Shown here: positions 44,925-62,797 of the stretch, one piece after another | How positions within the stretch are numbered: position 1 is the first letter of the stretch | How the letters are laid out: every line of letters begins with the position of its first letter | DNA from: Halorussus limi | Lineage (GTDB): Archaea; Halobacteriota; Halobacteria; Halobacteriales; Haladaptataceae | Length of the DNA stretch: 64,000 bases | Direction: 5' to 3' | Assembly (NCBI RefSeq): GCF_023238205.1 | Contig: NZ_CP096659.1 | Coordinates: forward strand, 1,550,001 to 1,614,000 | Position numbers and translations under genes: made by a program | Notes under the pieces: model-generated | Seen by the model: the letters and a program-made list of their open reading frames with translations, nothing else | What the model was told of the DNA's origin: nothing | The model's database searches: none

Positions 44925-45998
44925 ATGACCGCGACAGTTCGACTCCGCCGCGCGCTCGACAAGTGCGAGACCGAGCGGGCACCCGACCCCCGCACGACGG
45001 TCTTCGACGTGACTCCCGAGGAAACCGCCGGTGCGGTCCTGCTCTCGGGAACCGTCCTGACCGCCGACCTCCGAGCGCGAGCGGTCGAGGCCGTCGAGTC
45101 GGTCGCCGACGCTCCGGTCGCGGCGACCGACGTGACCGTCCTCGCCGACGAGGCCCGCCAGCGAACCGCCACCGCGCCGGTCGCGCCGGTCCGCGGGGAA
45201 CCGAACGAGGACGCCGAGCAGGTGACGCAGGTCCTCTACGGCGCGGCCGTCGAGGCGTTCGACGCCGACGGCGAGTGGCGGCGGGTGCGAACCCCGGACG
45301 GCTACGTCGCGTGGGTCGAAGACGACGCGCTCGGCCCGGCCGTCGAGGCGTTCGACGCCGACGCGGTGGTGTCGGTCGGGGCCGTTCGCGGCGAGGGCGT
45401 CGGGGACCGCGCCGGCGGCCCCGAACCGGTGTACGCGGGCACCGAGTGCGAACTCCTCGGCGACGGCGCGACCGGAGGTTCGGACGCTCACGACCCCGGG
45501 TCCGGGAAGTCGGATTCCTCGTCTGCGGATTCCGACGCGCGAGTCCGGGTCCGGTTCCCGACCGGCGCGGAGCGAACCCTGCCCGCCGACGCGGTGGCCC
45601 GGACTCCGGACGAACCCACCCGCGAGGGCGTGGTCGCGGCGGCGCGGCGCTATCTCGGAACCGAGTACGTCTGGGGCGGGACGACCGTCGAGGGCATCGA
45701 CTGCTCGGGACTGACGCGGATGGCCTACCACCAGAACGGCGTCTCGCTCCCCCGAGACGCCGACCTCCAGCGTCGGATGGGCGAGGCGGTCGCCCGCGAG
45801 ACGGTCGCGCCCAACGAACTCGCGCCGGCCGACCTGCTCTTTTTCCCCGGCCACGTCGCGCTGAGTCTCGGCGGGGCTGAGTTCGTCCACGCTTACGGCG
45901 ACGCCGACGAAGTCGTCGTGGACAGTCTCGACCCGGACGCCGAGAACTACAACGCGGCGCTCGACGAGGACTTCGAGTTAGCGACGCGACTGCTCTGA
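44925..45998 (+). CDS. NlpC/P60 cysteine peptidase, YkfC-like (gamma-D-Glu-L-diamino-acid type)
   Basis: A 357-residue peptidase. An N-terminal beta region (about 25-80), one clear bacterial-type SH3 domain (82-135; VAPVRGEPNEDAEQVTQVLYG, DGYVAWVEDDAL), a second SH3-like region (140-226) and a C-terminal NlpC/P60 domain. The catalytic triad Cys260 (GIDCSGL), His310 (FFPGHVAL) and His322 (EFVHAYG) is in place. This SH3-SH3-NlpC order is that of Bacillus YkfC and dipeptidyl-peptidase VI, which cut L-Ala-gamma-D-Glu-diaminopimelate peptides. No signal peptide, so it acts in the cytoplasm. It heads the run dgcN, epimerase, regulator, S9 peptidase. Confidence 0.8.
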   Translation: MTATVRLRRALDKCETERAPDPRTTVFDVTPEETAGAVLLSGTVLTADLRARAVEAVESVADAPVAATDVTVLADEARQRTATAPVAPVRGEPNEDAEQVTQVLYGAAVEAFDADGEWRRVRTPDGYVAWVEDDALGPAVEAFDADAVVSVGAVRGEGVGDRAGGPEPVYAGTECELLGDGATGGSDAHDPGSGKSDSSSADSDARVRVRFPTGAERTLPADAVARTPDEPTREGVVAAARRYLGTEYVWGGTTVEGIDCSGLTRMAYHQNGVSLPRDADLQRRMGEAVARETVAPNELAPADLLFFPGHVALSLGGAEFVHAYGDADEVVVDSLDPDAENYNAALDEDFELATRLL

Positions 45999-46073
45999 AA
46001 ACTGTCAGAGGGGAGCGGCGACCCATACATGCGTGGGGGTCCAATTTTACCGTTCCGTACGTCACAGCAACGC

Positions 46074-47117
46074 ATGGATTTACGGAGTGCGTTCGACCCG
46101 CCGGTTCCCACCATCGTCCTCGCGGAGGGCGAGTTCGGCCGACCGGGCGGCAAGACCGCGAACGGCGTCGTCAGCCACAGCGAACTGTTCGAGGCCCGGG
46201 CGGTCGTGGACTCGACCCACGCGGGCCGCGACGTGGACGAGGTTCTCGACCACCCCGGACGCTCGGACGTGCCCGTCGTCGCGTCGGTCGAGGAGGCCCT
46301 GACGGTCGCACCCGAGGCCGAGGCGCTGGTCGTCGGCGTCGCGCCCGCGGGCGGCGAACTCCCGGAGGAGTGGAAGGCCGACATCCGGGACGCCATCCGG
46401 GCGGGGTGCGACGTGGTGTCGGGCCTCCACGTCTTCCTCGGCGAGCAAGACGAGTGGCGGGGACTGGCCGACGAGGCGGGCGTCCGGTTGTTCGACGTGC
46501 GGAAACCGCCCGCCGAAGACGAGTTGCGGGTCGGCGACGGCCGGGTGGACGACCTCGACGCGACGGTGGTCCTCACGCTCGGCACCGATTGCGCGGTCGG
46601 CAAGCGCACGACTACCTTCGAACTCTATCGGGCGGCCCGAGAGGCGGGACTCGACGCGGGGTGGGTCGCGACGGGCCAGACCGGCATCATGGTCGGCGCT
46701 CACCGCGGCGTCGTCGTCGACCGCGTACCCGCCGACTTCACCGCTGGCGCGGTCGAGGACTCCGTCTGCGGAGTCGCCGAGGACCACGACATCGTCTTCG
46801 TCGAGGGGCAGGCCGCGCTCTCCCACCGCGCGTACTCGGGCGTCACGCTCTCGCTCCTCCACGGCGCGTGGCCCGACGCGGTGGTGCTGGCTCACGACCC
46901 GGACCGCGAGCGCCGGACCCACTTCGAGCGGTTCTCGGTCGGCCTCCCCGAGGCCGAAATCGACCTGATAGAGTCGCTCTCGGACGCGGAGGTCGCGGCG
47001 GTCTCGACGTGGGGCGACCCGGCCGACGACGACTTCGGCCGACCCGCGGCGAACGTCTATCACGAGGGCGGCCCGGCGCGACTCTTGGACGCGGTCCGGG
47101 AGGCGACCGACTCGTGA
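46074..47117 (+). CDS. dgcN: DUF1611 P-loop protein, DgcN (D-glutamate N-acetyltransferase type)
   Basis: A 347-residue DUF1611 protein. The N-terminal domain (LAEGEFGRPGGKTANGVVSHSELFEARAVVDSTHAG) leads to a C-terminal P-loop fold with GTDCAVGKRTT (170-180) and VFVEGQAALSHRAYSG. DUF1611 members paired with a dipeptide-epimerase-like enzyme were described as DgcN, which N-acetylates D-glutamate as the first step of D-Glu breakdown in marine bacteria and haloarchaea. Its stop overlaps the GTG of the epimerase gene (GTGA), so both are coexpressed. ATG at 46074 by homology. Confidence 0.75.
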   Translation: MDLRSAFDPPVPTIVLAEGEFGRPGGKTANGVVSHSELFEARAVVDSTHAGRDVDEVLDHPGRSDVPVVASVEEALTVAPEAEALVVGVAPAGGELPEEWKADIRDAIRAGCDVVSGLHVFLGEQDEWRGLADEAGVRLFDVRKPPAEDELRVGDGRVDDLDATVVLTLGTDCAVGKRTTTFELYRAAREAGLDAGWVATGQTGIMVGAHRGVVVDRVPADFTAGAVEDSVCGVAEDHDIVFVEGQAALSHRAYSGVTLSLLHGAWPDAVVLAHDPDRERRTHFERFSVGLPEAEIDLIESLSDAEVAAVSTWGDPADDDFGRPAANVYHEGGPARLLDAVREATDS

Positions 47118-48193
47118 CCGGGGAGGCGTCCGAAATCCCGGTCGCCGAACTCCGTGTCGAACCGCTGACGCTCGCGCTGGAAGCGCCCTTCGAAATCGCG
47201 CTCGGCACGCGCCGCGAGGCCCGGAACGTGCTGGTGGAAGTCGAGACCGAGGACGGCGTCGTCGGTTACGGCGAGGGGTCGCCGCTCCCGCCCGTGACCG
47301 GCGAGACGCAGGACGCCGCGGTCGCGGTCGCGCGCGAGGCCGCGGACCTGCTCGTAGGCCGGGACCTCGCGGAGTATCGGGCCGTCTGCGCCGACCTCCG
47401 GGCGGCGTTCCCGGGCGCGAACTCGGCGCTGTTCGCGCTCGAAACCGCGGTGCTGGACGCCTACGCGAGGAGTCGCGGACTGGCGCTCTCGGAACTGTTC
47501 GGCGGGCCGCCCGAGACCGTCGAGACCGACCTCACGATTCCCATCGTCGGGAGCGACGAGGCCCGCGAGCGCGCCGCGAGCGCCGCGGGAGCGGGCTTCT
47601 CGCACCTCAAAATCAAGGCGGGCGACGGGGTGTCGGCCGCGGTCGAGCGCGTCGCCGCCGCCCGTGAGGGCGCTCCCGAGGCGGCGCTCAAGGTGGACGC
47701 GAATCAGGGCTGGTCGTCGAAGGAGACGCTCCGATTCCTCCGGAGACTGCGGGAGCGCGGGGTGGAACTCGCGCTGCTGGAACAGCCGGTACACCGCGAC
47801 GACCTCGCGGGACTGGCCCGGGTCCGGGACCGCGCGAGGGCGCCGGTCGCGGCCGACGAGGCGGTGTTCTCGCCCGAGGACGCGCTGGCGGTCGTCCGGG
47901 CCGACGCCGCCGACGTGATAAACGTGAAGTTGGGCAAGTCGGGACCGGTCGCGGCGGGCGAAATCGCGGCCGTCGCGGACGCCGCGAACCTCGACCTCAT
48001 GGTCGGGTGCATGCTCGAGAGCGCGCTCGGCATCCGCGCGAGCGCCCACGTCGTCGCCGGTCTCGGGTCGTTCGACTACGTGGACCTCGACGGCAACCGA
48101 CTGCTCGCCGAGGACGTGGCGGCGTCCGAGGCGGGTCCCGATATCGAAATCGCCGGACCGGGCCACGGCGTCGTCCCCGAGCGAGACAGGTGA
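47114..48193 (+). CDS. dgcA: enolase-superfamily dipeptide epimerase (L-Ala-D/L-Glu or N-acetyl-D-Glu racemase)
   Basis: A 359-residue enolase-superfamily enzyme of the muconate-lactonising/epimerase branch. The two-base system is intact: K-x-K with Lys166 and Lys168 (HLKIKAG), metal ligands Asp195 (VDANQGW), Glu223 (LLEQPV) and Asp248 (ADEAV), and Lys272 (VKLGKSGPV). The substrate-specificity strand GCMLES (299-303) is the mark of L-Ala-D/L-Glu epimerases (YkfB/YcjG). Coupled to DgcN it may instead be DgcA, the N-acetyl-D-Glu racemase. Either way it inverts a D-Glu centre. GTG start at 47114 overlaps the dgcN stop. Confidence 0.85.
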   Translation: MTGEASEIPVAELRVEPLTLALEAPFEIALGTRREARNVLVEVETEDGVVGYGEGSPLPPVTGETQDAAVAVAREAADLLVGRDLAEYRAVCADLRAAFPGANSALFALETAVLDAYARSRGLALSELFGGPPETVETDLTIPIVGSDEARERAASAAGAGFSHLKIKAGDGVSAAVERVAAAREGAPEAALKVDANQGWSSKETLRFLRRLRERGVELALLEQPVHRDDLAGLARVRDRARAPVAADEAVFSPEDALAVVRADAADVINVKLGKSGPVAAGEIAAVADAANLDLMVGCMLESALGIRASAHVVAGLGSFDYVDLDGNRLLAEDVAASEAGPDIEIAGPGHGVVPERDR

Positions 48194-48247
48194 ATTCCCC
48201 GACACGAACGCAACACTAATTACGATTGTACTGTGTCATCATAACCC

Positions 48248-48982
48248 GTGAGTGTGACACGCATTCCCGACGCCGACGGCGGCGTCTCCTACAAGCAGGT
48301 CGAACTCGACCTCTGGCACCCCAACTGCTGGACGCTGGAGGTGACCGACGACTTCCCGAACACCCACCTCATCGAGAAGTCGCTCTACCCCGCCGACGAC
48401 CAAATCAAGGGCGACTTCCTCCTCGTCTCCGAGGGCGAGACCGACATCGAAACGTTCGTCGAGGCCATCGACGACCACCCGGTCGTCGACGAGGTGGCGG
48501 TCCTCAAGCAGTCGGGCGAGCGCGCCCGGGTCGTGGTCAACTACGACCGGGCCAACAGCATCGTCCCCGACATCGTGAACTCCGAGTTCATGCCGGTGGA
48601 ACCGGTCCACATCACCGGCGGCACCGAACACTGGACCGTTCTGGTCCGGGCCGACCGACTCGGCGACGTGGTCGAAGCGATGCAGGCCGAGTACGACGTG
48701 GACGTGAACTCGATTCGGGAGGCCGACCCGAGGGAGAGCGTCGAGTTCGCCGACTTCGTGGACCAAGTCGAGGACCGCCTCTCGGAGCGCCAGACCGAGA
48801 GTCTGCTCAGCGCCCGGCGCATCGGCTACTACAACTGGCCCCGCGACGTGTCGGCCGACGCCGTGGCCGACTGTCTCGACGTGAGCAAGCCGACCGTCCT
48901 CGAACACCTCCGGAAGGGCGAACAGAAGGTGCTGAACCTCTGTATCGACGAACTCGAACGCCGGAAGGGCCGCAAGCGATGA
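48248..48982 (+). CDS. bacterioopsin-activator-type HTH (HTH_10) transcriptional regulator
   Basis: A 244-residue regulator with an N-terminal ligand- or signal-binding region (VSYKQVELDLWHPNCWTLEVTDD) and a C-terminal HTH_10 domain (about 175-235; LSERQTESLLSARRIGYYNWPRDVSADAVADCLDVSKPTVLEHLRKGEQKVL). This family is specific to Halobacteria. Its stop overlaps the start of the S9 peptidase gene (ATGA), placing it inside the peptide-salvage operon. It is the best candidate for its specific regulator. GTG start at 48248. Confidence 0.85.
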   Translation: MSVTRIPDADGGVSYKQVELDLWHPNCWTLEVTDDFPNTHLIEKSLYPADDQIKGDFLLVSEGETDIETFVEAIDDHPVVDEVAVLKQSGERARVVVNYDRANSIVPDIVNSEFMPVEPVHITGGTEHWTVLVRADRLGDVVEAMQAEYDVDVNSIREADPRESVEFADFVDQVEDRLSERQTESLLSARRIGYYNWPRDVSADAVADCLDVSKPTVLEHLRKGEQKVLNLCIDELERRKGRKR

Positions 48983-50976
48983 CGGAGGGGTCGAGGCTCT
49001 CGGTCGCCGACGTTCTCGACGTGAACTACCCGAGCGCGCCCGAGTGGTCGGCCGACGGCGACTTCCTCGCGACGCTGGTCTACGAGGACGACGGAAACGC
49101 CCTCCGAATCGCCGACGCCGACGCGCCGCGCGAGGCGTGGCGCGTCTCGCCCGGCGAGGGCCACGTCGCGGGGTTCGAGTGGGCGCCCGAGGCCCGACCG
49201 ACCGAGTTCGTCGCGACCACCGACGCGGGCGAGACGTTCCGCGGCGACGCCGCCGACCGGTCGCTCAGCCTCGTCGCCCGGTCGCCAGAGGGCGAGTCTC
49301 ACCACGAGTGGTCGCCCGACGGCGACCGGGTGGCGTTCTACCGCGACGGACGCCTCTGGGTCCGGGACGCTGATTCGGCGGTAGAGCGACGCCTCGACGT
49401 GCCCGGACGCGACGCGTTCCTCCCGAGCGAGCGTCCGATAGTGTGGGACGGAGCGGGCGACCGCCTCGCGTTCTCGTTCACCGACCGCGAGTCGCGACAG
49501 GTCGGGGTCGCGGCGGTCGAATCGGGTGACCTCCGGTGGCGGACCGACGCGCCCGCGTCGAGCGCGAACCCGGCGTGGCTCGCGGACGGCCGGGTCGTCT
49601 TCGAGCGCATCGCGGACGAGCGGACCGTCCGGTCGGTGGTGGCCGCCGACCCCGAGTCGGGCGACCGGTCCGAGTTGGTCCGCGAGGAGGACGAGCGCGG
49701 CACCGTCTCGTCGGGCGCGCCGACCGTCTCGCCCGACGGCGCTCGACTCGCGATGGCGCTCCCGCTCGACGGGTGGGAACACGTCCACGTCGTGGACTGC
49801 GCGACCGGCGAGCGCCGCCAGTTGACCGCCGGCGCGTTCGAGGACAAGGGACTCGCCGGGTCGTCGCCTCAGTGGGTGGACGACGAGACGCTGGCGTTCG
49901 CGTCGAACCGCCGGGACCTCGGCGAGCGCCAGATTTTCGCGGTCGATACCGGGACCGAGGCGGTCCGTCCGCTGGTCGAGTCTCAGGGTACGAACGTCTA
50001 CCCCCGGCCCTCGCCCGCGGGCGACCGAGTCGCGTACGTCCACGCCGACGCCGGCGTCTCGCCCGAAGTTCGGGTGCGGTCGCTCGGCGACGAGGCGAGC
50101 GACCCGGTGCGAGTCACCCGTTCCGCCGTCGAGGACTGGCCGACGGACCCGCTCGCGCCCGAGGCGGTCAGTTTCGAGAGCGCCGACGGGCGGGAGATTC
50201 GGGGCTACCTGTTCGACCCGCGCGAGACCGACGCGGTGGCCGACGACGCGACGGACCTGCCGGGCGTGGTCTGGGTCCACGGCGGGCCGATGCGCCAGAT
50301 GCGCGACGGGTGGCACCCCTCGCGGTCGTACGGACTGGCCTACGCGTTCCACCAGTACCTCGCCCGGCGAGGGTACGTCGGCCTGCTGGTCAACTACCGG
50401 GGCGGCATCGGGTACGGCCGGGAGTTCCGCCAGTCGCTGACCGAGGGCTACGGCCGCGACGAGATGGCCGACGTGGTCGCGGGCGGGGAGTTCCTCCGGG
50501 ACAGGCCCTCCGCGTCGGACGCCGTCGGCGTCTGGGGCCTCTCGTACGGCGGGTACGCCGCGCTCCAGATTCTCGGCACACACCCGACGGCGTTCGACGT
50601 GGGCGTCAACCTCGCTGGACTGGCCGACCTCGAACTCTACGAGGAGTGGGCCATCGAGACGAAGTTTCCCGCCGTCGAGTCCTCGCAGGCGCTCACGTTC
50701 GGCGGGAACCCGTGGGAGGCCGACGACGAGTGGGCCGCCGCGAGTCCGAAGACCCACTTCGGGAACTACGAGGCACCGCTCTACAACTTCCACGGCACGG
50801 GCGACTCCTACGTCAACTTCGAGCAGTTGGACGTGGTTATCGAGGGGATGCTCGAACACGGCAACGAGTACGAGGCCGAGTACTACCCCGGCGAGAACCA
50901 CGTCTTCGCCGAGCGTGCGACGTGGGAGCGCACCTTCGACAAAATCGAGTCGGCCTTCGACGAGCATCTGAAGTGA
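48979..50976 (+). CDS. S9-family (prolyl oligopeptidase/acylaminoacyl) serine peptidase
   Basis: A 665-residue two-domain peptidase. The N-terminal seven-bladed beta-propeller (about 10-400, with repeats such as WSPDGDRVAF and VSPDGARLAMAL) gates access for short peptides. The alpha/beta-hydrolase domain has Ser522 (GLSYGGYAA), Asp609 (FHGTGDSYV) and His641 (GENHVF). An oxyanion motif WVHGGP precedes it. No signal peptide, so it cleaves short peptides in the cytoplasm. Overlap with the HTH gene and position next to dacB and dpp suggest work on imported peptides. Confidence 0.9.
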   Translation: MTEGSRLSVADVLDVNYPSAPEWSADGDFLATLVYEDDGNALRIADADAPREAWRVSPGEGHVAGFEWAPEARPTEFVATTDAGETFRGDAADRSLSLVARSPEGESHHEWSPDGDRVAFYRDGRLWVRDADSAVERRLDVPGRDAFLPSERPIVWDGAGDRLAFSFTDRESRQVGVAAVESGDLRWRTDAPASSANPAWLADGRVVFERIADERTVRSVVAADPESGDRSELVREEDERGTVSSGAPTVSPDGARLAMALPLDGWEHVHVVDCATGERRQLTAGAFEDKGLAGSSPQWVDDETLAFASNRRDLGERQIFAVDTGTEAVRPLVESQGTNVYPRPSPAGDRVAYVHADAGVSPEVRVRSLGDEASDPVRVTRSAVEDWPTDPLAPEAVSFESADGREIRGYLFDPRETDAVADDATDLPGVVWVHGGPMRQMRDGWHPSRSYGLAYAFHQYLARRGYVGLLVNYRGGIGYGREFRQSLTEGYGRDEMADVVAGGEFLRDRPSASDAVGVWGLSYGGYAALQILGTHPTAFDVGVNLAGLADLELYEEWAIETKFPAVESSQALTFGGNPWEADDEWAAASPKTHFGNYEAPLYNFHGTGDSYVNFEQLDVVIEGMLEHGNEYEAEYYPGENHVFAERATWERTFDKIESAFDEHLK

Positions 50977-51212: not shown

Positions 51213-52568
51213 TCACTTCAGAAGTCCACGGACGAACTCGTCCTGCCGTCGCCGCGCCTCGTCCGCTTCGACCGTCAGGCCGCCGTAGACGGCCGAGAAG
51301 AACACGTCCGACTCTTCCTCCCGACGAACCACGCCCGAGAGCGCGCTCGTCCCCGTCACGGTCCCGGTCTTGGCGCGCAGGCCGTCCACGCCGTCCAAGC
51401 GCGACGAGAGGGTTCCCTCGCCCGGCGCGGGGAGCGAGTCGAAGAAGGCGTCGGCCCACGGCGCGTCGTCGGCCCGCGCCAGAAGGCCGACCATCCCCCG
51501 CGCGGTGACGAGGTTGTAGCGCGACAGCCCAGACCCGTCGCGGAGTCGGCAGGCGACCGCGCCGCAGTCTCCGAGGAAGTCGGTCGCGAGCGACTCCCAC
51601 CGCTCCCACGACCCCTCGCCGTCGCGTTCGGCGGCGACGGTTCGGGCGAGTTGCTCGGCGACGAAGTTGTCCGAGGGGACGTTCATCGCCCGGAGCAGGT
51701 CGGCGACCGGCGCGGACTCGACCGCGCGGGAGAACGCCTCGCGCGCCGGAGTTTCGCCCGACTCCGCGGCGCGAACCTCGCCCTCGACTGTCACGCCCGC
51801 CGCTTCGAGCGCGTCCCGAAAGACGAGTCCGCAGTGTCGCTCGGGCCGGACGACCGGCGCGCGCTCGGTCCGGTCGGCCCCGGCGGGGAGCGACCCCTCG
51901 ACGCGAACCGCGCCGGTGTCGGGGTCGGTGAAGACCTCGAACGCGGCGTCGTCGCCCTCGGCCGCGCCGAGGTCGGTCTCGACAGCGATTTCCGGCGAGT
52001 CGGGCGCGACCGAGACCCGGAACTCGCCGGACTCGTCGGGGTCGGAGGCCCGGACCTCGACGGTGTTGCCCGAGAGCGCGAGCGCCGAACTCGGCGCGCC
52101 GTAGGCGTGCCGCCGGTCGCCGACCGTCCACCCCGGTGCGTAGCGCCCGCCCGCGAACCGACTCCCGTCGAGCAGGAGGTCACCGGCGACCGCACTCGCT
52201 TCCTCGGCGACCGCTTCGGCGAGGTCGGTCAGGTCCTCGCGAGTGAGGTCGGGCGCGCCCGACCCGCGGAGGACGAGGTCGCCGTCGAGTCGGTCGTCGC
52301 GGACGCTTCCCCGGCCCGCGACGCGCGTCTCGAAGGTGTACGCCGGTCCCAACTCGTCGAGCGCCAGCGCCGCGGTGACGAGTTTGGTGTTCGACGCCGG
52401 GGTGAGCGCCCGGTCGGGGTCTGCGCTCGCGAGGACTTCGCCGCGGATGTCTCCGCTCGCGGGGTCGTCGCCGTCCGCAGTGACGACCTCGCCACCGTCT
52501 CGCGCCGCGGCCAGCACCCCGACGCTCGCGCCGTCGATTCCGGCGAGCGGCGCGGTCGGGTCGCTCAC
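51213..52568 (-). CDS. dacB: DacB/PBP4-type D-Ala-D-Ala carboxypeptidase (S13), cytoplasmic
   Basis: A 451-residue penicillin-binding-fold peptidase. SxxK at Ser59-Lys62 (TPASNTK), SxN at 299-301 (VPSDNFVAE) and KTG at 400-402 (LRAKTGTVTGTSAL), with the extra inserted domain of PBP4/DacB between the first two. It has no signal peptide, unlike bacterial DacB. A murein-free archaeon has no own substrate, so it probably removes terminal D-Ala from imported muropeptides. Start: GTG at 52568, whose GTGA overlaps the dppF stop; GTG at 52571 is possible. Last gene of the minus-strand dpp operon. Confidence 0.85.
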   Translation of the reverse strand: MSDPTAPLAGIDGASVGVLAAARDGGEVVTADGDDPASGDIRGEVLASADPDRALTPASNTKLVTAALALDELGPAYTFETRVAGRGSVRDDRLDGDLVLRGSGAPDLTREDLTDLAEAVAEEASAVAGDLLLDGSRFAGGRYAPGWTVGDRRHAYGAPSSALALSGNTVEVRASDPDESGEFRVSVAPDSPEIAVETDLGAAEGDDAAFEVFTDPDTGAVRVEGSLPAGADRTERAPVVRPERHCGLVFRDALEAAGVTVEGEVRAAESGETPAREAFSRAVESAPVADLLRAMNVPSDNFVAEQLARTVAAERDGEGSWERWESLATDFLGDCGAVACRLRDGSGLSRYNLVTARGMVGLLARADDAPWADAFFDSLPAPGEGTLSSRLDGVDGLRAKTGTVTGTSALSGVVRREEESDVFFSAVYGGLTVEADEARRRQDEFVRGLLK

Positions 52569-53950
52569 CACTCGAACGCCTCGCTGGCCTCGGCGTCGAG
52601 GTGGCAGGCCGACCGGTGGTTCTCGCCGACGGATTCGAGCGGCGGCACCTGCGACTCGCAGACCGACTCGTGGGGCGCGAGCGCACCGAGCGCGTCGTCC
52701 CACTCGCGGCGGGCGACGGCGTCGGCGGCGTCCCGAACTGCGCGCTCGGCGTCGGGCGGAATCTCGCTGAGGCGGTCGAAGTACGCCGCGACGAGGTCGT
52801 CGGGCGAGCGGCCGGGGTCGAGGTCCCGCGCCTCCACGTCGTCGCGGAACGCCGCGAACTCGGCGTACCCCTCGTCGGTGAACCCTTCGGGGACTATGAA
52901 CGCCGGACAGCGCGTGTGGAACTTACACCCGGAGGGCGGGTTCGTCGGACTCGGCACGTCGCCCGCCAGTTCGGCGACGACCCCCGACGAGTCGGGGTCG
53001 GGGTTCGGCACCGCGTCGAGCAGCGAACGGGTGTACGGGTGGTGGGGTTCGGTGAACAGTCGCTCGGTCGGGCCGGTCTCCACGAAGTCGCCGACGTACA
53101 TCACCGACACGCGGTCGGCCATGTTCCGGATGACCCCGAGGTCGTGGGTGATGAACAGGTAGGTCAGGCCGAACTTCTCCTGCAGGTCGTCCATCAGGCT
53201 GAGAATCTGGGCCTGCACGGACATGTCGAGTCCGCTGACCGGTTCGTCGGCGATGACGAGGTCGGGGTTGATGCTGAGCGCCCGCGCGAGGTTGACGCGC
53301 TGGCGCTGGCCGCCCGAGAACTCGTGGGGGTAGCGACCGTAGTAGTCGCCCTCCAGTCCGACCTGTTCGAGCAGTTCGACCGCGCGGTCCTTCCGGTCGG
53401 CCTTCGACCACCCCGCGGCCTCCAGCGGGTCGGCGATGATTTCGCCGACCTTCCGGCGCGGGTTCAGACTGCTCATCGGGTCCTGAAACACCATCTGGAC
53501 GTTCTCGCGGAACCACCGCTCGTCCTCGCTGTCGAAGTTCGTCACGTCCCGGCCGTCGAACCGGATGGTCCCGTCGGTCGGTTCTTCGAGGCCGACGACG
53601 GTCCGGGCGAGCGTGGACTTGCCGCATCCCGACTCGCCGACGACGCCCAGCGTCTCGCCGGGGTAGAGTTCGAAGTCCACGCCGTCGACGGCCTTCACGC
53701 TCGAATCGTCGAACCCGAACGGGAGGCCGCCGCGGTCGGACCTGAACAGGTTGACGAACGCATCCCGCGGGGAACCGCTGAACTGACGGAGCGTCTCCTG
53801 CTCGCGGAACTGGCGGAAAACTTCCCCATCGCGGTCGAGTTTGATGGAGTCGAGGAACCCCGAGTTGACCGGGAAGTGAGTCTTCAGTCCCTCGACGCTC
53901 AGGAGCGGTTGGTCGGCGTCCTTCCGGCGGCGCTCGACGGTCGAACTCAT
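52565..53950 (-). CDS. dppF: dipeptide/oligopeptide ABC transporter ATPase (DppF)
   Basis: A 461-residue ATPase: Walker [10 protein letters not shown] (105-113), signature SGGQRQR, Walker B LVIADEP, and the oligopeptide-specific C-terminal Cys motif [11 protein letters not shown], which binds an Fe-S cluster in this family. It is longer than usual. About 50 extra residues (30-82) sit before the conserved [16 protein letters not shown] strand, and there is an acidic C-terminal extension with a late Cys. It overlaps dppD by 4 nt and dacB by 4 nt. Confidence 0.9.
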
Positions 53951-56054: not shown

Positions 56055-56055
56055 G

Positions 56056-57006: not shown

Positions 57007-57088
57007 CTTTGGCGTAGCGTCCGACGTGAGCGACTCATTGTCATTTGGTAACTATAATCGTACTGGATGCGGAACCGGGAGGGGACCG

Positions 57089-58813
57089 CTACTTCTGGAG
57101 GTAGGCGTTCGACCACTCGTTACAGAGCGGCTGCTGGGCGAACGCGCTCGGTTCGTAGTCCTTCACGTCCTTGCTCCACCCGGTGACGGCCTGCTCCGAG
57201 AACACCGGGATGTGGGGGTACAGCGACTGCCACGTCTCGGCGGCGTCGATGTAGAGTTTCTTGCGCTCGGCCCTGTCGGTCGTCCGCCGGGCGTCCCGAA
57301 TCTTCTTGTCCACCTGTTTGAGTTGGTCGCTGTCCTGGGACTTGTAGAGGTACCCGGCCGAGGCGTTGCCGACCACGCCGTCGCTCAGGCCGCCCTCGTC
57401 GTTGCGCATGTCGCGGAACAGGTAGTAGTAGAACCCGTCGGGGTCCTGTCCGCCCGACCAGCCGTAGATGTTCACGTCGAACTCGCCGGAGTCGAGTTCG
57501 TTGAGCCACTGGCCGATGGTGACCTCGCGGACCTCCGACTTGATGCCGACCTTCTTCAACTCGTTCTGGAGGATGATGGCCATGTTCTTGAACTTCGAAC
57601 TGGCCAGCGACGAGATTTTGAGCGTCTTGTCCATCCCGCCGCCGTAGCCCGCCTCCTTCAGGAGCTGTTTGGCCTTCTGGTGGTCCTTGGCCGGGTAGTA
57701 CTTCTCCTTCCACTCCTGCCACGGGAACTCCCACGACTTGTTGACCTCGGTGGGCATGAACCCGTACGCGCGCTTGCCGAGTTGGCCCTTCGTGGACTTC
57801 AGCATCTTGTCGTAGTCGACGAGGTACTGCATCGCCTCCCGGACTTTCACGTCGTCGAACGGCTTGCGCATCGAGTTGAAGATTAGGCCGTTGTAGTCGA
57901 ACTGCGAGATGCGCTTCATGTTGATGCTCGACTCCGACTTGGCCTTCCCGATGAGGTTCTTGGGCACGGTGGCCTGGTGAACGCCGCCGGAGGCCAGTTC
58001 CACGAACTGGACCTGCGGCTTGGGGATGACTCGCTTCTTTATCTTCCCGAGGTTCGGCTTCTTCAGGAAGTAGTCGGCGTTGCGCGTCAGGTCGATGTGC
58101 GACGACGAGACGTGCTTCTCGAACGCGAACGGCCCGGTGCCGACCGGCTTCTGGCCGAACTTCTTCGGGCCCTGCTTCTCGGCGACGCTCTTGGGGACGA
58201 TGCCCGCGTTCATCCCCGACAGCACGAGTTGGAACAGCGCGAACGGGTACTTCAGGTTGAACGTCGCCTCGTACTTGCCCGACGCCTCGACGCTGTCCAC
58301 GAAGTTGAGGTTCGCCCTGTTCGGCGACTTGTTCTCGGGGTCGAGCGTCCAGTTGATCGAGTAGGCCACGTCCTCGGCCGTGAGTTCGTCGCCGTTGTGG
58401 AACTTGACGCCCTCCTTGAGCGGGATGACGAACGTCGTCTCGTCCTGCTGTTTCGGCTGCTCGCTGGCGAGGTGGGGAACGAACTTCTTCCCGTCGGGAC
58501 TCGGGAGGTAGAGCGTGTCGAAGATGTAGTGGAGGAAGCTGTTCACCCACGCGAGTTCGTTCATCCGCGGGTCGAGCGTGGTGGCGTCCTCGGCCGTCGT
58601 CCCGATGAACGTGCCGCCGCCCTGCACGTTCTGTTGCTGTTCCTCGGTCGTTTCGCCGCCGCCCATCGACTCCGTGGTCGTGCCACCGCCGCCGGTGGTC
58701 GTGCCTTGGCCGTCGTTGTTGCCGCCGGCACAGCCGGCGAGCATGCTACCACCCAACAGACCCGAAGTCGCCAGGAAGCGACGCCGGTCGAATTTCGTGT
58801 GTTCGTCGGTCAT
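57089..58813 (-). CDS. dppA: dipeptide/oligopeptide-binding lipoprotein (DppA/OppA type)
   Basis: A 574-residue extracellular solute-binding protein (SBP_bac_5). Tat motif DRRRFLAT (9-16) and lipobox MLAGC (lipidated Cys28), then a Gly/Thr/Glu linker (29-65) and the peptide-binding fold (GTFIGTTAEDATTLDPRMNELAWV, FVIPLKEGVKFHNGDELTAEDVAYSINWTL). It captures peptides outside the membrane and delivers them to DppBC. First gene of dppABCDF-dacB. The Tat signal is the only secretion signal found in the cluster. Confidence 0.9.
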   Translation of the reverse strand: MTDEHTKFDRRRFLATSGLLGGSMLAGCAGGNNDGQGTTTGGGGTTTESMGGGETTEEQQQNVQGGGTFIGTTAEDATTLDPRMNELAWVNSFLHYIFDTLYLPSPDGKKFVPHLASEQPKQQDETTFVIPLKEGVKFHNGDELTAEDVAYSINWTLDPENKSPNRANLNFVDSVEASGKYEATFNLKYPFALFQLVLSGMNAGIVPKSVAEKQGPKKFGQKPVGTGPFAFEKHVSSSHIDLTRNADYFLKKPNLGKIKKRVIPKPQVQFVELASGGVHQATVPKNLIGKAKSESSINMKRISQFDYNGLIFNSMRKPFDDVKVREAMQYLVDYDKMLKSTKGQLGKRAYGFMPTEVNKSWEFPWQEWKEKYYPAKDHQKAKQLLKEAGYGGGMDKTLKISSLASSKFKNMAIILQNELKKVGIKSEVREVTIGQWLNELDSGEFDVNIYGWSGGQDPDGFYYYLFRDMRNDEGGLSDGVVGNASAGYLYKSQDSDQLKQVDKKIRDARRTTDRAERKKLYIDAAETWQSLYPHIPVFSEQAVTGWSKDVKDYEPSAFAQQPLCNEWSNAYLQK

Positions 58814-58891
58814 GATTATTAAGTACGGTCGGCTCGAACCGTGATAACGAATAGCAAGTCGAACGGGAGTAAATAAGTGAGCCCTATTATA
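58814..58891 (-). promoter_or_regulatory. promoter region of the dpp operon
   Basis: The 78 nt before dppA contain an AT-rich TATTATACTAG on the plus strand (58883-58893) that could serve as TATA region for the leftward operon, although it is rather far from the ATG. A closer AATAATC-type patch (58812-58818) adjoins the start. No clear operator repeat is seen. Confidence 0.35.
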
Positions 58892-59368
58892 CTAGTGCTC
58901 AGCCGATACTTCCACCGAAAGTTCGTCGTACGCTCCCCGCGCCCGCCAGTCCGGAACGGCGAGATAGCCCGTGAAATCGACTCTTCCGGGGTACGCGACC
59001 CACCGGTCGCCGTCGTCGCCCCGGCGTCGAATCCGACCGTCCCACGTCGCCTCGAACGTCCGTCGCTCGCCGCCGCTCAAGACGGTCGCCCGGGTCGCCT
59101 CGGGGGGTTCGAGGCCGCGCTCGTCGGCCTCCGGCACGTCGTCGACCCGCCAGCCCCAGACCCGACTGGTCGGGTGCGTGACCCGAACCGCCACCGGGAG
59201 TCGATTTTTGACCGCGACCACGAACCGCGCCGGTTCGCCGACCGTCACGGTGTCGGGTCCGCGGACCGCGACCGAGAGCGCGCGAACCGCGAGCGACTGG
59301 GGGACGAGTCCGGCGAACCGCCCGGTGCTACCGCCGTCGCCGTCGTCGGAGACTGAAAACTGCCGCAT
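58892..59368 (-). CDS. hypothetical single-domain beta protein
   Basis: A 158-residue acidic protein. The middle (VRGPDTVTVGEPARFVVAVKNRLPVAVRVTHPTSRVWGWRVDDV, about 36-79) and the late GERRTFEATWDG resemble an Ig-like beta-sandwich of the BsuPI/intracellular proteinase-inhibitor type, but this is only a pattern resemblance. No signal peptide. It lies between dppA and lysA on the same strand, 78 nt before dppA, so it may belong to the same operon. Function unknown. Confidence 0.6.
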   Translation of the reverse strand: MRQFSVSDDGDGGSTGRFAGLVPQSLAVRALSVAVRGPDTVTVGEPARFVVAVKNRLPVAVRVTHPTSRVWGWRVDDVPEADERGLEPPEATRATVLSGGERRTFEATWDGRIRRRGDDGDRWVAYPGRVDFTGYLAVPDWRARGAYDELSVEVSAEH

Positions 59369-59394
59369 TCGTCCGGAGGGTCGGACCGGGCCGA

Positions 59395-60690
59395 CTAATT
59401 TGTTCGCCCCGCCGACGCCTCCTCGTCGGTCAGGTCGCCGGGGATGCGGTCGTTGCCCAGCACGTCCTCGCAGGTCTCGCGCGCTCGAATCGTCTCGACG
59501 TCGCCCGACTCCCGGACCAGCGCGACCGGGGGTTTCGGTTCGGCGTTGGTGTGACTCGCGCTCCCGAGCGAGTAGGCTCCGATGCGGTCCACCGCCAGCA
59601 CGTCGCCGCGGTCGAGTTCCGGGAGGTTCACGTCCTCCTGAATCACGTCGCCGGTGTAGCAGAGCGGCCCCGCGACGTGGTACTTCTGGGACGCATTGGC
59701 CTCCGAGAGCGCGTAAATCGGGTAGGGCCAGTACGAAGAGACCGCGTTCGTCCCGGCGTCCAGCACCGCGAACGAGGCGTGGGGCGTCTCCTTCACGACG
59801 CCGACCTCGGCCAGCAGGGTGCCGGCGTTACCCACGAGACGGCGGCCGGGTTCGACGCAGAGGGTCGGTTCCGAGAGGTCGCGGTCGGCCGCCGCGCTCC
59901 GCACGGCGTCGGCCATGCTCGCCACGATGGTCTCGGTGTCGGGCACCTCCTCGTCGTAGGGGACCGGGAACCCGCCGCCGAGGTCCAGCACCTCGATTTC
60001 GACGCCGGTCGCGTCGCGCACGTCGGCCGCGAACGAGAGCATCTCGCGGGCCGCGACCTCGTAGGGTTCGACGCCCCGAATCTGGCTCCCGACGTGCAAC
60101 TGGACCCCGACGAGTTCGACGCCGTCGGCCGCGACCGCCTCCTCGGCGACCGACAGCGCCCGGCCCGACTCGATGTCGAGACCGAACTTGCTCTCGCGGG
60201 TGGCGGTCGCCACCTCGGGGTGGGTCGGCACCTCCATCGCCGGGTTCCCGCGAATCAGCACCTCGGCCTCGGTGTCGGTCCGGGCGGTCGCCTCCCGAAT
60301 CTTCGCCAGTTCCTGTTCGTTGTCCACGAGGAACCGCTCGACGCCGAGGTCGAGCGCGCGTTCCACGTCCTCGACGGGTCGGTTCATCCCGGTCAACAGC
60401 ACGTCCTCGGCGTCGAATCCGGCGGCCTGCGTGGCCGAGAGTTCGCACCGGGCGTAGGCCTCGGCGTGACAGCCTTCGTCGCGCAGGACCGACAGCACGC
60501 CGAGGTTGTAGTTGGCCTTGACCGCGAAGTGAATGGTGGAGTCGGGGTAGTGGTCGTTGAGCGCCGCCCGGACCGCTCGGTAGTTGCGCCGCAGGTCTTC
60601 CTCGAAGAAGGCGTACACCGGGGTGTCGAACGCCTCGAACAGCGCGTCCCGGTGGTCGAGCAGTCGGGCTTTGCGTGCCGCTAAGTCCAT
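59395..60690 (-). CDS. lysA: diaminopimelate decarboxylase-type PLP enzyme (LysA)
   Basis: A 431-residue fold-type III PLP decarboxylase. PLP-lysine Lys58 (HFAVKANYN), LHVGSQI (His-Gly-Ser, about 198-204), GGGFPVPY (phosphate loop), CVEPGRRLVGNAG (Glu-Pro-Gly-Arg), the second-subunit Cys in CYTGDVIQED and Tyr in GAYSLGSASHTN. These fit meso-diaminopimelate decarboxylase, giving L-lysine and CO2. Ornithine or other diamino-acid decarboxylases of the family are alternatives. No dap biosynthesis genes are nearby; the peptide-salvage neighbours suggest it handles imported diaminopimelate. ATG at 60690 by homology. Confidence 0.8.
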   Translation of the reverse strand: MDLAARKARLLDHRDALFEAFDTPVYAFFEEDLRRNYRAVRAALNDHYPDSTIHFAVKANYNLGVLSVLRDEGCHAEAYARCELSATQAAGFDAEDVLLTGMNRPVEDVERALDLGVERFLVDNEQELAKIREATARTDTEAEVLIRGNPAMEVPTHPEVATATRESKFGLDIESGRALSVAEEAVAADGVELVGVQLHVGSQIRGVEPYEVAAREMLSFAADVRDATGVEIEVLDLGGGFPVPYDEEVPDTETIVASMADAVRSAAADRDLSEPTLCVEPGRRLVGNAGTLLAEVGVVKETPHASFAVLDAGTNAVSSYWPYPIYALSEANASQKYHVAGPLCYTGDVIQEDVNLPELDRGDVLAVDRIGAYSLGSASHTNAEPKPPVALVRESGDVETIRARETCEDVLGNDRIPGDLTDEEASAGRTN

Positions 60691-60818
60691 ACACGGTGGA
60701 GGGAAAACGACGACAAAAGCTATCGACCTAGCATGCGGGGGTGGAAATCGAGGCGAACCCGGAGGCGGTTCGCCGGGGGACCGAGAAGTTATCAGGCCGG
60801 ACTGTGAGAACTCTGCGC

Positions 60819-61901
60819 ATGGTCGAACGCTCCGTCCGCTTCGAGGACCTCGAAACACTCGTCGCGGCGCGCGGCCCGCCGGGGGGCGAGTACCCCGTCG
60901 CGGACGCCTTCGCCGAACTGGTCGAACCGCACGTCGACTCGGTGACCCACGACGAGATGGGCAACGTAATCGCAACGAGCGAGGGGTCGGACCCCGACGC
61001 GCCCGAAATCGCGCTCGCGGCCCACACCGACGAACTCGCCGTTCTCGTCGACGACGTGACCGACGACGGCTTTCTGGAGTACCGGATGCTCGGGGGCCAC
61101 TACAAGGGGAACTTCCCCGGCCAGCGCGTCCGGGTCGGTCCGGACGGCGTCCTCGGCGTCGTCGGCCCGAAGTCCCGACACTACATGTCCGGCGACGAGA
61201 AGGAGTCGCTGGCCGAGGACCTCGTCGTGGACGTGGGCGCGAGCAGTCGCGCCGAGGTCGAGGCGCTGAACGTCGAACCCGGCGACCACGCGACGTGGGA
61301 CCGCGAGGTGGCCGAACTCGCCGGAGACCGCGTCACGGGCCGGGCGCTCGACGACCGCCTCGCGCTCGCGGTGCTTCTGGGCGCGGCGCGCGCCGCCGAC
61401 ACCGACGCCACGGTCCACTACGTCGCCACGGTGCAGGAGGAGGTCGGTCTCCGGGGCGCGCGGGCGACCGGGTTCTCGATAGACCCCGACGTGGCGGTCG
61501 CGGTCGAGATATTCCCGGCCGACGACTACCCCGCGGGCGGCGACGACGGACCGGGGGTCGCGCTCGGCGAGGGCCCCGTGGTGGAGTTCGGCGACGGCAC
61601 CTCCGAGTACATGTTCGGCGGCGTGCTGGTCGACCGACAGACCCGCTCGTGGCTCGAAACCGCCGGAGAGTCGGCCGACGCGTCGCTCCAGCACGCCGTG
61701 ATGGTCGGGGGAACCACCGACGCCACCGAGTTCCAGCAGGTCCGGGGCGGGCGACACGCGGGGGCCATCGCGGTCCCGTGTCGCTACACGCACTCGCCGG
61801 TCGAGACGGTGTCGCTCGCGGACGCCCACGAGACGGTCGCCGTCCTCTCCGAGGCCCTCGAAACGCCGTTCCCGTCCCGCGACGAGGTCCGGTGGGGATG
61901 A
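60819..61901 (+). CDS. M42-family metallo-aminopeptidase
   Basis: A 360-residue dinuclear zinc/cobalt aminopeptidase. Metal and catalytic residues are visible: His in AAHTDELAV, Asp in GRALDDRLAL, Glu pair in QEEVGLRGA, and His in RYTHSPVE. The PDZ-like insert of M42 (about 75-165; FPGQRVRVGPDGVLGVVG) builds the tetrahedral TET particle. It removes N-terminal residues from short peptides. It overlaps the beta-lactamase-fold gene by 4 nt (ATGA), forming a two-gene operon divergent from lysA. ATG at 60819 by homology. Confidence 0.9.
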   Translation: MVERSVRFEDLETLVAARGPPGGEYPVADAFAELVEPHVDSVTHDEMGNVIATSEGSDPDAPEIALAAHTDELAVLVDDVTDDGFLEYRMLGGHYKGNFPGQRVRVGPDGVLGVVGPKSRHYMSGDEKESLAEDLVVDVGASSRAEVEALNVEPGDHATWDREVAELAGDRVTGRALDDRLALAVLLGAARAADTDATVHYVATVQEEVGLRGARATGFSIDPDVAVAVEIFPADDYPAGGDDGPGVALGEGPVVEFGDGTSEYMFGGVLVDRQTRSWLETAGESADASLQHAVMVGGTTDATEFQQVRGGRHAGAIAVPCRYTHSPVETVSLADAHETVAVLSEALETPFPSRDEVRWG

Positions 61902-62797
61902 GGCCAGACCCGCCCGCCGTCGAGACGCGCGCCGAACTCGCCGAGTACGTCGAGTCCTACGCCGACCGCCTCGACGGCCGACTCGGCGTCTTCCTCGGGT
62001 TCCCCCGCGGCCCGGACGAGTTCGACGCGGTGGTTCGGCGGAACGCCGAGACCGCGTTCGCCGCGGCGAGCACCGTCAAACTCCCCGTCCTCTACGCGCT
62101 CTACGACGAGTACGACGGCCGCCTCGACGACCTCGACCGGACCCGCGAAATCGCATCCGAGAACCGGGTCGCGGGGAGCGGTCTCTACCACCTGCTCTCG
62201 GCGACCGACCCGTCGGTCGAGGACCTCGCTCGCGCGATGATAGCGGTCAGCGACAACGCCGCGACGAACGAACTCATCAACCTCCTCGGGACTGACCGAA
62301 TCGAGGCCGCGGCGGCCGACCTCGGGATGGAGCGGACCCGCCTGCGCCGGAAGATGATGGCGACGCTCGGCGACAACGACCTCGAACCGACCCGCGACTG
62401 GCCGGCGGACGAACCCGCGAACGCCACCTCGCCGGCCGACTGCGCGCGCTTCTTCGCCGACGTGGTCCACCGGGCGACCCTCTCGGCGGCGGCCTACGAC
62501 CGGTTGCTGGTTCCGCTCCGCGAGCAGAAGCACACGATGCTGTTCCCGCGCTACCTCCCGATGGACGTCTCTCTGACGCACAAGACCGGCCGACTCCCGA
62601 CCGCCGCGCTCGACGCCGGGTACGTCGAACCGCCGACCGAATCCGACGCGTCGGATTCGGCCCTTCCCGACCCCGACGACCCGCCGCTCGTCTTCGCGGT
62701 GTTCGCCGACGGACTCGACACCGGGACCGACGGGGCCGACGCCATCGCAGAAATTGGGGACGCGGCGTTCTCGTGGCTGTCGAGTCGCTCGGCGTGA
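61898..62797 (+). CDS. class A beta-lactamase-fold serine hydrolase, cytoplasmic
   Basis: A 299-residue penicillin-recognising hydrolase: SxxK Ser58-Lys61 (AASTVK), SDN 118-120 (IAVSDNAAT) and HKTG 228-231 (LTHKTG). The omega-loop Glu166 of true class A beta-lactamases is not recognisable (RRKMMATLGDNDLEP instead), so it is probably a DD-peptidase or esterase relative, not an antibiotic resistance enzyme. It has no signal peptide. Translationally coupled to the M42 peptidase, consistent with trimming D-Ala or D-residue-containing peptides. Confidence 0.8.
   Translation: MRPDPPAVETRAELAEYVESYADRLDGRLGVFLGFPRGPDEFDAVVRRNAETAFAAASTVKLPVLYALYDEYDGRLDDLDRTREIASENRVAGSGLYHLLSATDPSVEDLARAMIAVSDNAATNELINLLGTDRIEAAAADLGMERTRLRRKMMATLGDNDLEPTRDWPADEPANATSPADCARFFADVVHRATLSAAAYDRLLVPLREQKHTMLFPRYLPMDVSLTHKTGRLPTAALDAGYVEPPTESDASDSALPDPDDPPLVFAVFADGLDTGTDGADAIAEIGDAAFSWLSSRSA

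What the first reader, a model, noticed from the sequence alone, without database searches (positions are those of the whole stretch)
44925..62797. A haloarchaeal murein-peptide salvage locus: import plus cytoplasmic dismantling of bacterial cell-wall peptides
Seen: within 18 kb lie an NlpC/P60 peptidase with YkfC domain order, a dipeptide epimerase with intact K-x-K and GCMLES motifs, DgcN, an S9 peptidase, a DD-carboxypeptidase (DacB), a full DppABCDF importer with coupled start/stop overlaps, a LysA-type decarboxylase, an M42 aminopeptidase and a beta-lactamase-fold hydrolase. Known: Bacillus dpp-ykf pairs the same importer with YkfB (epimerase) and YkfC (gamma-D-Glu endopeptidase) to eat muropeptides; LysA would turn diaminopimelate into lysine. 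Halobacteria make no murein. Inference: this is a scavenging system for bacterial cell-wall debris covering each unusual bond or residue (D-Ala, gamma-D-Glu, diaminopimelate), run from cytoplasmic enzymes. I have not seen it described as one system in archaea.
Basis: partly seen in the sequence, partly recalled or inferred. Interest (0 to 1): 0.88.

Follow-up and report, generated by a model that had tools for sequence, protein, structure and literature searches.

The report
Haloarchaeal bacterial-wall peptide salvage island
A salt-loving archaeon, which has no bacterial-type cell wall of its own, carries a conserved gene island that looks built to import and digest the unusual peptides of bacterial cell walls, including a decarboxylase labelled as a lysine-making enzyme whose substrate pocket has been rebuilt.

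Summary
The genes are there, intact, at the stated coordinates. The muropeptide-salvage reading is largely supported, and comparison strengthens it. Of 242 Halobacteria genomes searched, 19 have an NlpC/P60 gene, 10 the window-type LysA homologue and 10 an S13 (DacB) gene; every genome with either of the latter two also has NlpC/P60. Importer, DacB, LysA-type and NlpC genes recur together, in rearranged order, in several families, on main contigs and plasmids. All 18 intact NlpC copies aligned keep both YkfC residues that read a free N-terminal L-Ala. Corrections: (1) the 'LysA' is probably not an ordinary diaminopimelate decarboxylase: in 22 of 22 genomes two of three residues that grip the free L-end of DAP are replaced (Arg to Ser, Glu to Tyr), and the genome has a second, canonical lysA among dap genes. 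(2) The DgcN-epimerase pair is a separate module found in relatives without NlpC; it resembles a D-glutamate pathway that a paper's title ascribes to halophilic archaea. (3) S9 and M42 peptidases are generic. Proposal: imported murein peptides are trimmed, cut at gamma-D-Glu, and the D-centre of DAP is decarboxylated, possibly while still peptide-bound. No activity or transport has been shown.

The parts
44925..45998 (+). YkfC-type NlpC/P60 peptidase (SH3b + NlpC/P60), no leader seen by eye; predicted gamma-D-Glu-diamino acid endopeptidase
   Evidence: PF00877, PF18348; 18 of 18 intact haloarchaeal copies keep Cys/His/His and the YkfC-diagnostic Asp256 and Tyr118 equivalents; AlphaFold model pLDDT 88, six best PDB matches are dipeptidyl-peptidase VI entries and 3h41
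46029..47117 (+). DUF1611 / DgcN-like D-glutamate N-acetyltransferase candidate
   Evidence: PF07755/PF17396; NF041892 DgcN 194 bits, below its cut-off of 480; pairs with an epimerase elsewhere in relatives
47114..48193 (+). Dipeptide epimerase / N-acyl-Glu racemase of the enolase superfamily
   Evidence: PF13378/PF02746; catalytic Lys, metal ligands and DxD motif intact, position 24 Gly instead of Arg
48248..48982 (+). HTH_10 regulator, overlapping the S9 start
   Evidence: PF04967; similar gene in 11 of 24 compared neighbourhoods
48979..50976 (+). S9 prolyl-oligopeptidase-family peptidase
   Evidence: PF00326, PF00930; start
51213..52568 (-). DacB-like S13 D-Ala-D-Ala carboxypeptidase, no leader seen by eye, start overlapping the dppF stop
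   Evidence: TIGR00666 235 bits, over cut-off; SNTK, SDN, KTG and 4-nt overlap; S13 in 10 of 242 genomes, all NlpC+
52565..53950 (-). DppF-type ATPase
   Evidence: PF00005 + PF08352
53947..55005 (-). DppD-type ATPase
   Evidence: PF00005 + PF08352
55005..56054 (-). DppC-type permease
   Evidence: PF00528
56056..57006 (-). DppB-type permease
   Evidence: PF00528 + PF19300
57089..58813 (-). DppA-type peptide-binding lipoprotein with a twin-Arg leader and lipobox (read by eye)
   Evidence: PF00496 267 bits; RRRF/RRKF...AGC N-terminus in all 10 rows printed, the window and nine copies from seven relatives
58892..59368 (-). Conserved protein of unknown function between the LysA-type gene and dppA
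   Evidence: No Pfam or NCBIfam match at E 0.001; similar gene in 12 of 24 compared neighbourhoods
59395..60690 (-). LysA-family PLP decarboxylase with remodelled distal pocket
   Evidence: TIGR01048 325 bits, over cut-off; Ser and Tyr at the R285 and E315 positions of T. maritima DAPDC, R249 equivalent kept, in 22 of 22 distinct genomes
60819..61901 (+). M42 aminopeptidase (start inferred)
   Evidence: PF05343 240 bits; frame printed
61898..62797 (+). Class A beta-lactamase-fold serine hydrolase, start overlapping the M42 stop
   Evidence: PF13354 145 bits; STVK, SDN and KTG readable, no leader by eye

Best explanation
A salvage island for the peptide part of bacterial peptidoglycan, in an archaeon without murein. 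Inferred flow: the DppABCDF transporter imports murein stem peptides or D-amino-acid peptides of that kind. DacB (S13), the beta-lactamase-fold hydrolase and, elsewhere in the genome, an M55 D-aminopeptidase and an S66 LD-carboxypeptidase homologue remove D-Ala in the cytoplasm. The YkfC-type NlpC/P60 enzyme cuts L-Ala-gamma-D-Glu from the diamino acid. The DgcN/epimerase pair turns the D-Glu part into L-Glu, as a dipeptide or as N-acetyl-D-Glu. The LysA-family enzyme decarboxylates a D-centre, most likely the free D-end of meso-DAP whose L-end is peptide-linked or otherwise modified, giving lysine or a lysyl peptide. Shown by computation: gene content, conserved association, YkfC-specific residues, YkfC-like fold match, altered LysA pocket. 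Inferred: transport specificity, cell location, order of steps and every enzymatic activity.
For: NlpC in 19 of 242 Halobacteria; LysA clade 10 of 242 and S13 10 of 242, each wholly inside the NlpC+ set (hypergeometric 5.9e-13 each), 9 shared between LysA and S13. Dpp, DacB, LysA, NlpC and epimerase in the same order and strand in G163, G032, G116 and G047, and clustered within 18 kb of NlpC, in other orders, in the window, G073 and (without a nearby epimerase) G123. The window's arrangement recurs on a Halorussus halophilus plasmid; Natrialba magadii pNMAG01 has overlapping lysA-NlpC-epimerase-serine hydrolase genes and an annotated D-aminoacylase. YkfC diagnostics (Asp256 + Tyr118 rule, PMC2954226, passages) kept in 18 of 18 intact copies. 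Six best PDB matches of the NlpC model are dipeptidyl-peptidase VI entries and 3h41. An M55 gene (family of Bacillus DppA D-aminopeptidase) lies near the island genes in G073, G123 and G209, and similar genes in three more loci; M55 is in 7 of the 10 LysA genomes against 19 of 242 overall. Own genome encodes an M23 peptidase with a twin-Arg-like leader by eye.
Against: No substrate or activity tested; DppA-type binding proteins are broad. Nine of 19 NlpC+ genomes lack the LysA clade; the four of genus g5 (one with a broken NlpC) show no other island protein within 18 kb except distant DppF-like matches in two. G045 and G082 have LysA, NlpC and epimerase but no importer within 18 kb. Position 24 (Arg in YkfB) is Gly in 26 of 26 full-length haloarchaeal epimerases aligned. 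DgcN, DgcA and epimerase scores lie below NCBIfam cut-offs. S13 also occurs in the control Methanosarcina acetivorans, so it is not unique to this setting. Association values treat genomes as independent.
Confidence: 0.74

Rival explanations
1. One reading: the LysA-family enzyme is an ordinary meso-DAP decarboxylase that turns free DAP, released by NlpC/P60, into lysine.
For: Passes the curated TIGR01048 cut-off (325 vs 297.9 bits); EPGR, GGG, KAN and Cys/GAY stretches kept; best Foldseek matches are M. jannaschii DAPDC (model pLDDT 74); changing E315 alone in T. maritima DAPDC leaves residual DAP activity.
Against: In 22 of 22 genomes the Arg285 and Glu315 equivalents, which bind the free L-carboxylate and L-amine of DAP, are Ser and Tyr. 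The genome's own canonical LysA, the G209 LysA, the solved DAPDC sequences printed (five rows, four distinct proteins) and two archaeal relatives (L097, L098) keep Arg and Glu. E315F in T. maritima drops meso-DAP activity from 675 to 36 mU/mg; the Tyr change itself and changes at Arg285 were not in the text I saw.
Confidence: 0.25
2. The island salvages D-amino-acid or gamma-glutamyl peptides in general (for example poly-gamma-D-glutamate fragments or D-amino acids of dissolved matter), not murein in particular.
For: DgcN/epimerase, an annotated D-aminoacylase and M55 are general D-amino acid enzymes; the LysA-type protein scores higher with the D-ornithine/D-lysine decarboxylase model (187 bits) than the canonical LysA does (130 bits).
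Against: YkfC-type residues for free L-Ala before gamma-D-Glu in 18 of 18 copies, and an S13 family confined to NlpC+ genomes in this sample, point to murein.
Confidence: 0.2
3. Part of an attack or defence trait: debris handling after killing bacteria with secreted hydrolases, or protection from wall-derived or beta-lactam compounds, rather than feeding.
For: M23 genes scoring at least 85 bits occur in 10 of 242 genomes, 7 of them NlpC+ (cut-off chosen after seeing the gap); archaeal wall hydrolases kill bacteria (PMC12352652, passages).
Against: By eye the island enzymes have no export leader except NlpC in one relative; an importer with peptidases fits feeding better. The two ideas are compatible.
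Confidence: 0.08
4. Chance neighbourhood of ordinary peptide-utilisation genes with over-read annotations.
For: S9 and M42 are generic; DgcN/epimerase is a separate module.
Against: Repeated co-localisation in rearranged order across families, and restriction of S13 and the LysA clade to NlpC+ genomes.
Confidence: 0.03

Closest known systems
Bacillus dpp-ykf muropeptide uptake and recycling genes (gene layout recalled; YkfC structure paper PMC2954226 seen in passages)
   Same: Dpp-type importer, YkfC-type gamma-D-Glu endopeptidase, L-Ala-D/L-Glu-type epimerase; in some relatives an M55 gene like Bacillus DppA.
   Different: Archaeal, no murein to recycle; S13 carboxypeptidase gene overlapping the importer operon; LysA-family decarboxylase with altered pocket; DgcN; beta-lactamase-fold hydrolase; HTH_10 regulator.
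DgcN-DgcA D-glutamate catabolic pathway (Yu et al. 2023, title seen only in a reference list; paper not held)
   Same: Adjacent DUF1611 protein and enolase-superfamily racemase; title names marine Proteobacteria and halophilic archaea.
   Different: Here placed beside NlpC and the importer; scores lie below the NCBIfam cut-offs for DgcN and DgcA.
Meso-diaminopimelate decarboxylase LysA
   Same: Fold, PLP-site stretches, over the TIGR01048 cut-off.
   Different: Ser and Tyr in place of the distal-site Arg and Glu; not among the dap genes; in 21 of 22 genomes beside at least one of NlpC, DacB or importer genes (the exception, L094, shows only the 158-aa gene).
OppBCDF-MppA murein peptide uptake and archaeal peptidoglycan hydrolases (PMC12352652, passages)
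   Same: That paper notes that archaea with wall hydrolases more often have a full set of OppBCDF-MppA homologues (23% versus 8%) and suggests uptake of peptidoglycan.
   Different: The passages I read do not describe this catabolic island; the term NlpC does not occur in its main text.

Membership tests
YkfC / dipeptidyl-peptidase VI subfamily of NlpC/P60 | Catalytic Cys-His-His | tested here: met
   18 of 18 intact copies; the broken copy (G235) was dropped
YkfC / dipeptidyl-peptidase VI subfamily of NlpC/P60 | Asp256 plus SH3b Tyr118 equivalents | tested here: met
   18 of 18; rule from PMC2954226
YkfC / dipeptidyl-peptidase VI subfamily of NlpC/P60 | First SH3b domain packed on the NlpC/P60 active site | tested here: inconclusive
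   Full-chain Foldseek matches to 3npf, 3pvq, 4r0k, 3h41 with target TM 0.70-0.71 but rmsd 4.1-5.8; packing itself not measured
YkfC / dipeptidyl-peptidase VI subfamily of NlpC/P60 | Cleavage of L-Ala-gamma-D-Glu-mDAP | not testable with these tools
   No assay
Diaminopimelate decarboxylase (LysA) | Curated model score | tested here: met
   TIGR01048 325.5 vs cut-off 297.9
Diaminopimelate decarboxylase (LysA) | Distal-site Arg285 and Glu315 (T. maritima numbering) | tested here: not met
   Ser and Tyr in 22 of 22 distinct genomes; canonical LysAs compared keep Arg and Glu
L-Ala-D/L-Glu epimerase | Catalytic Lys residues, metal ligands and DxD motif | tested here: met
   26 of 27 haloarchaeal rows, the window included; the degenerate row G026b fails; four of 31 hits at about 41% identity or less were dropped before alignment
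L-Ala-D/L-Glu epimerase | Arg24 for the Glu side chain (role recalled) | tested here: not met
   Gly in all 26 rows that cover the site; Lys, Arg or Gln at position 26
L-Ala-D/L-Glu epimerase | NCBIfam equivalog cut-off (NF041118) | tested here: not met
   262 vs 500 bits, best of its matches
DgcN / DgcA | NCBIfam equivalog cut-offs | tested here: not met
   DgcN 194 vs 480 bits; DgcA 163 vs 400 bits
S13 D-Ala-D-Ala carboxypeptidase | SxxK, SxN, KTG and family score | tested here: met
   TIGR00666 235 vs 107.8; motifs
Murein peptide importer | Binding of murein peptides by DppA | not testable with these tools
   No binding data

The most novel reading that the evidence does not exclude
The LysA-family enzyme of this island is a new activity: a decarboxylase of the D-centre of meso-DAP while DAP is still in the stem peptide. 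In L-Ala-gamma-D-Glu-mDAP the L-amine is acylated (no Glu needed, Tyr instead) and the L-carboxylate is free (one of two Arg kept). It would turn a DAP-type murein peptide into a Lys-type peptide, which NlpC/P60 then splits to L-Ala-D-Glu and lysine, making bacterial walls a lysine and glutamate source for archaea.
Probability: 0.3. Interest if true: 0.8.

Novelty: new variant of a known kind. Interest (0 to 1): 0.62.

Why it matters
It gives a concrete, testable gene set for the open question whether archaea eat bacterial cell walls, links secreted archaeal wall hydrolases to a possible cytoplasmic catabolic route, and shows that a widely used LysA annotation hides an enzyme whose substrate pocket is rebuilt.

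Tried and rejected
A 222-aa minus-strand ORF at 48239-48907 that I first carried along as a gene is taken as an antisense reading: the gene with a family match there is the plus-strand HTH_10 regulator (H. halophilus annotation). I considered whether this LysA is simply the genome's lysine-biosynthesis enzyme; rejected, since a second, higher-scoring lysA lies in a dapA-dapB-dapD-lysA-dapF-dapE run. The AlphaFold model of the LysA-family protein was of no use for the pocket: most of residues 298-336 are below pLDDT 50. I could not see residue alignments to D-ornithine/D-lysine decarboxylase or BtrK, which rank outside the alignments shown. Island proteins were sought around the own-genome M55 gene and none was found in the 16 kb fetched. 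S66 is common (97 of 242), so its presence in 16 of 19 NlpC+ genomes is only mild support. M23 at the default threshold is common (70 of 242; 12 of 19 NlpC+); the stronger link uses a cut-off chosen after seeing the scores. No tree of the epimerases or decarboxylases was built. An earlier count said 18 of 18 for the LysA motif; the recount is 22 of 22 distinct genomes.
Full report
What is there. The window lies in a 4.6 Mb Halobacteria genome, on a 3.58 Mb contig. Its genus is Halorussus by inference: G147, listed as same genus, has a contig of the same length (115,478 bases) as Halorussus amylolyticus, and G176 one of the same length as a Halorussus salilacus plasmid. The 18 kb holds NlpC/P60, DUF1611 (DgcN-like), an enolase-superfamily epimerase, an HTH_10 regulator and S9 on the plus strand; DppA-B-C-D-F, DacB, a 158-aa unknown and a LysA-family decarboxylase on the minus strand; and M42 plus a class A beta-lactamase fold on the plus strand. 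Several start/stop overlaps are real. It is the only PF00877 match in the genome.

Is it a system? I searched 242 Halobacteria genomes, drawn by the tool evenly from the class. NlpC/P60: 19 of 242 genomes, 11 of 73 genera. Window-type LysA at E of 1e-60 or better: 10 of 242, 8 of 73 genera. S13: 10 of 242, 7 of 73 genera. All 10 LysA genomes and all 10 S13 genomes are NlpC+; 9 are shared between LysA and S13; hypergeometric values 5.9e-13, 5.9e-13 and 1.5e-14. These values treat genomes as independent and so overstate significance, but the LysA genomes fall in four families, and two of the five same-genus relatives in the sample lack NlpC. M55 D-aminopeptidase: 19 of 242, 7 of the 10 LysA genomes. 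S66: 97 of 242, 16 of 19 NlpC+ genomes. Among the tool's 14 control genomes NlpC/P60 rings in nine, none of them archaeal as I read the names; S13 rings in eight, one of them Methanosarcina acetivorans; S66 rings in Haloferax volcanii.

Gene order. Importer, DacB and LysA-type genes lie within 18 kb of NlpC in the window and in G163, G032, G116, G047, G073 and G123. In G147 NlpC with DgcN and epimerase sits on one contig, and LysA with importer on another, each near a contig end. G045 and G082 have LysA, NlpC and epimerase but no importer within 18 kb. Of the nine NlpC+ genomes without this LysA, G057 and G026 have a distant Dpp set and a more distant epimerase (G057 also a beta-lactamase-fold gene); G209 has an M55, a beta-lactamase-fold gene, a distant DppA and a canonical-type LysA; G176 has a beta-lactamase-fold gene; G024 only the FecE-type gene that also neighbours the window's NlpC; and the four of genus g5 show NlpC (one copy broken) and at most a distant DppF. 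A scan of the named genome collection with the LysA alignment gave 20 loci, 15 of them in this clade at 60 to 84% identity, the other five at 25 to 35%. With the Halorussus halophilus and Natrialba magadii plasmids that makes 17 named records: 16 have DacB, 15 importer genes and 12 NlpC in the stretch held; several stretches are cut by contig ends or by the 10 kb flank. H. halophilus carries the window's arrangement on a 532 kb plasmid. N. magadii pNMAG01 carries importer and dacB, then HTH, then lysA, NlpC, epimerase and a PF00144 serine hydrolase with touching or overlapping ends, then an annotated D-aminoacylase.

NlpC/P60. [quoted passage not shown] PMC2954226, passages), 18 of 18 intact haloarchaeal copies qualify; the copy with an in-frame stop was left out. 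That 2010 paper placed the subfamily predominantly in four bacterial phyla. The AlphaFold model (pLDDT 88) has three dipeptidyl-peptidase VI entries and 3h41 (the B. cereus YkfC structure, identity recalled) as its six best PDB chains. By eye no signal peptide is seen in the N-termini printed (starts there were picked by a script, some clearly wrong), except G057 (Halostagnicola), which has a twin-Arg-like start.

LysA. It passes the curated lysA cut-off. In Thermotoga maritima DAPDC, Arg249 and Arg285 hold the distal carboxylate of DAP and Glu315 its distal amine; replacing Glu315 by Phe lowers meso-DAP activity from 675 to 36 mU/mg and gives weak activity on two other D-amino acids (PMC8277567, passages and section 15; a Tyr mutant is not in the table I read). 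The genome's own canonical LysA, in a dapA-B-D-lysA-F-E run, keeps Arg and Glu, as do the four distinct solved DAPDC sequences printed. So the label 'LysA' should not be read as 'makes lysine from free DAP'. My reading, not shown: the D-centre is attacked while the L-end is peptide-linked. The window protein scores higher with the D-ornithine/D-lysine decarboxylase model than the canonical LysA does (187 against 130 bits), so another D-amino acid remains possible.

Epimerase and DgcN. The window's epimerase sits beside DgcN. The same pair stands side by side in nine genomes without an NlpC/P60 match (G162, G171, G009, G113, G115, G234, G039, G022, G016). G045, G047 and G082 hold two epimerase copies, one beside NlpC and one beside DgcN elsewhere; no tree was built. 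Catalytic residues and the DxD motif are intact in 26 of 27 rows, while YkfB's Arg24 is Gly in all 26 rows that cover it. [quoted passage not shown] I saw only its title in a reference list.

Literature. Searches for haloarchaea with muropeptide, dipeptide epimerase, peptidoglycan, murein, necromass, and the genera showed no description of this island in the listings I saw (longer result lists were cut at 12 to 20 rows) of an open-licence library that lacks most subscription papers. The nearest is PMC12352652, which reports secreted archaeal wall hydrolases and notes that such genomes more often have a full OppBCDF-MppA set, suggesting uptake (passages). In line with that, this genome has an M23 peptidase gene with a twin-Arg-like leader, and high-scoring M23 genes (10 of 242) fall mostly in NlpC+ genomes (7 of 10; cut-off chosen afterwards).

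Verdict. A real, conserved, patchily distributed island; function by inference; known in kind (dpp-ykf, recalled), new as an archaeal variant as far as these searches show, with one enzyme whose chemistry is probably mis-annotated.

Noticed in passing
G000:C1:3224577-3224861 (L110): An M23 peptidase gene with a twin-Arg-like leader and an SH3-like part by eye; M23 genes of at least 85 bits are in 10 of 242 genomes, 7 of them NlpC+.
   Followed up: partly
58892-59368: A 158-aa protein without any family match; similar genes occur in 12 of 24 compared neighbourhoods.
   Followed up: partly
L102:12001-13176 (Haloarcula sp. JP-L23 plasmid): A 48% relative of the LysA-type enzyme with Ala/Tyr at the two pocket positions, near a dapF and an amidase; no NlpC or importer among the annotated neighbours.
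   Followed up: partly
L008 (Halostagnicola, G057): The one NlpC copy seen with a twin-Arg-like start, so possibly exported.
   Followed up: no
L019 (G235) and L077 (G026): An NlpC copy with an in-frame TGA and a degenerate second epimerase: signs of decay of the module in some lineages.
   Followed up: no
G163:C34:129803, G032:C1:2017986, G116:C9:66897, G047:C1:2965511, G147:C3:33528, G123:C12:111862: Second S13 genes away from the island in six of the ten S13+ genomes; whether they are exported was not examined.
   Followed up: no
L104 and L103: The island lies on large plasmids in Halorussus halophilus and Natrialba magadii but on the 3.58 Mb contig here, which hints at mobility.
   Followed up: partly
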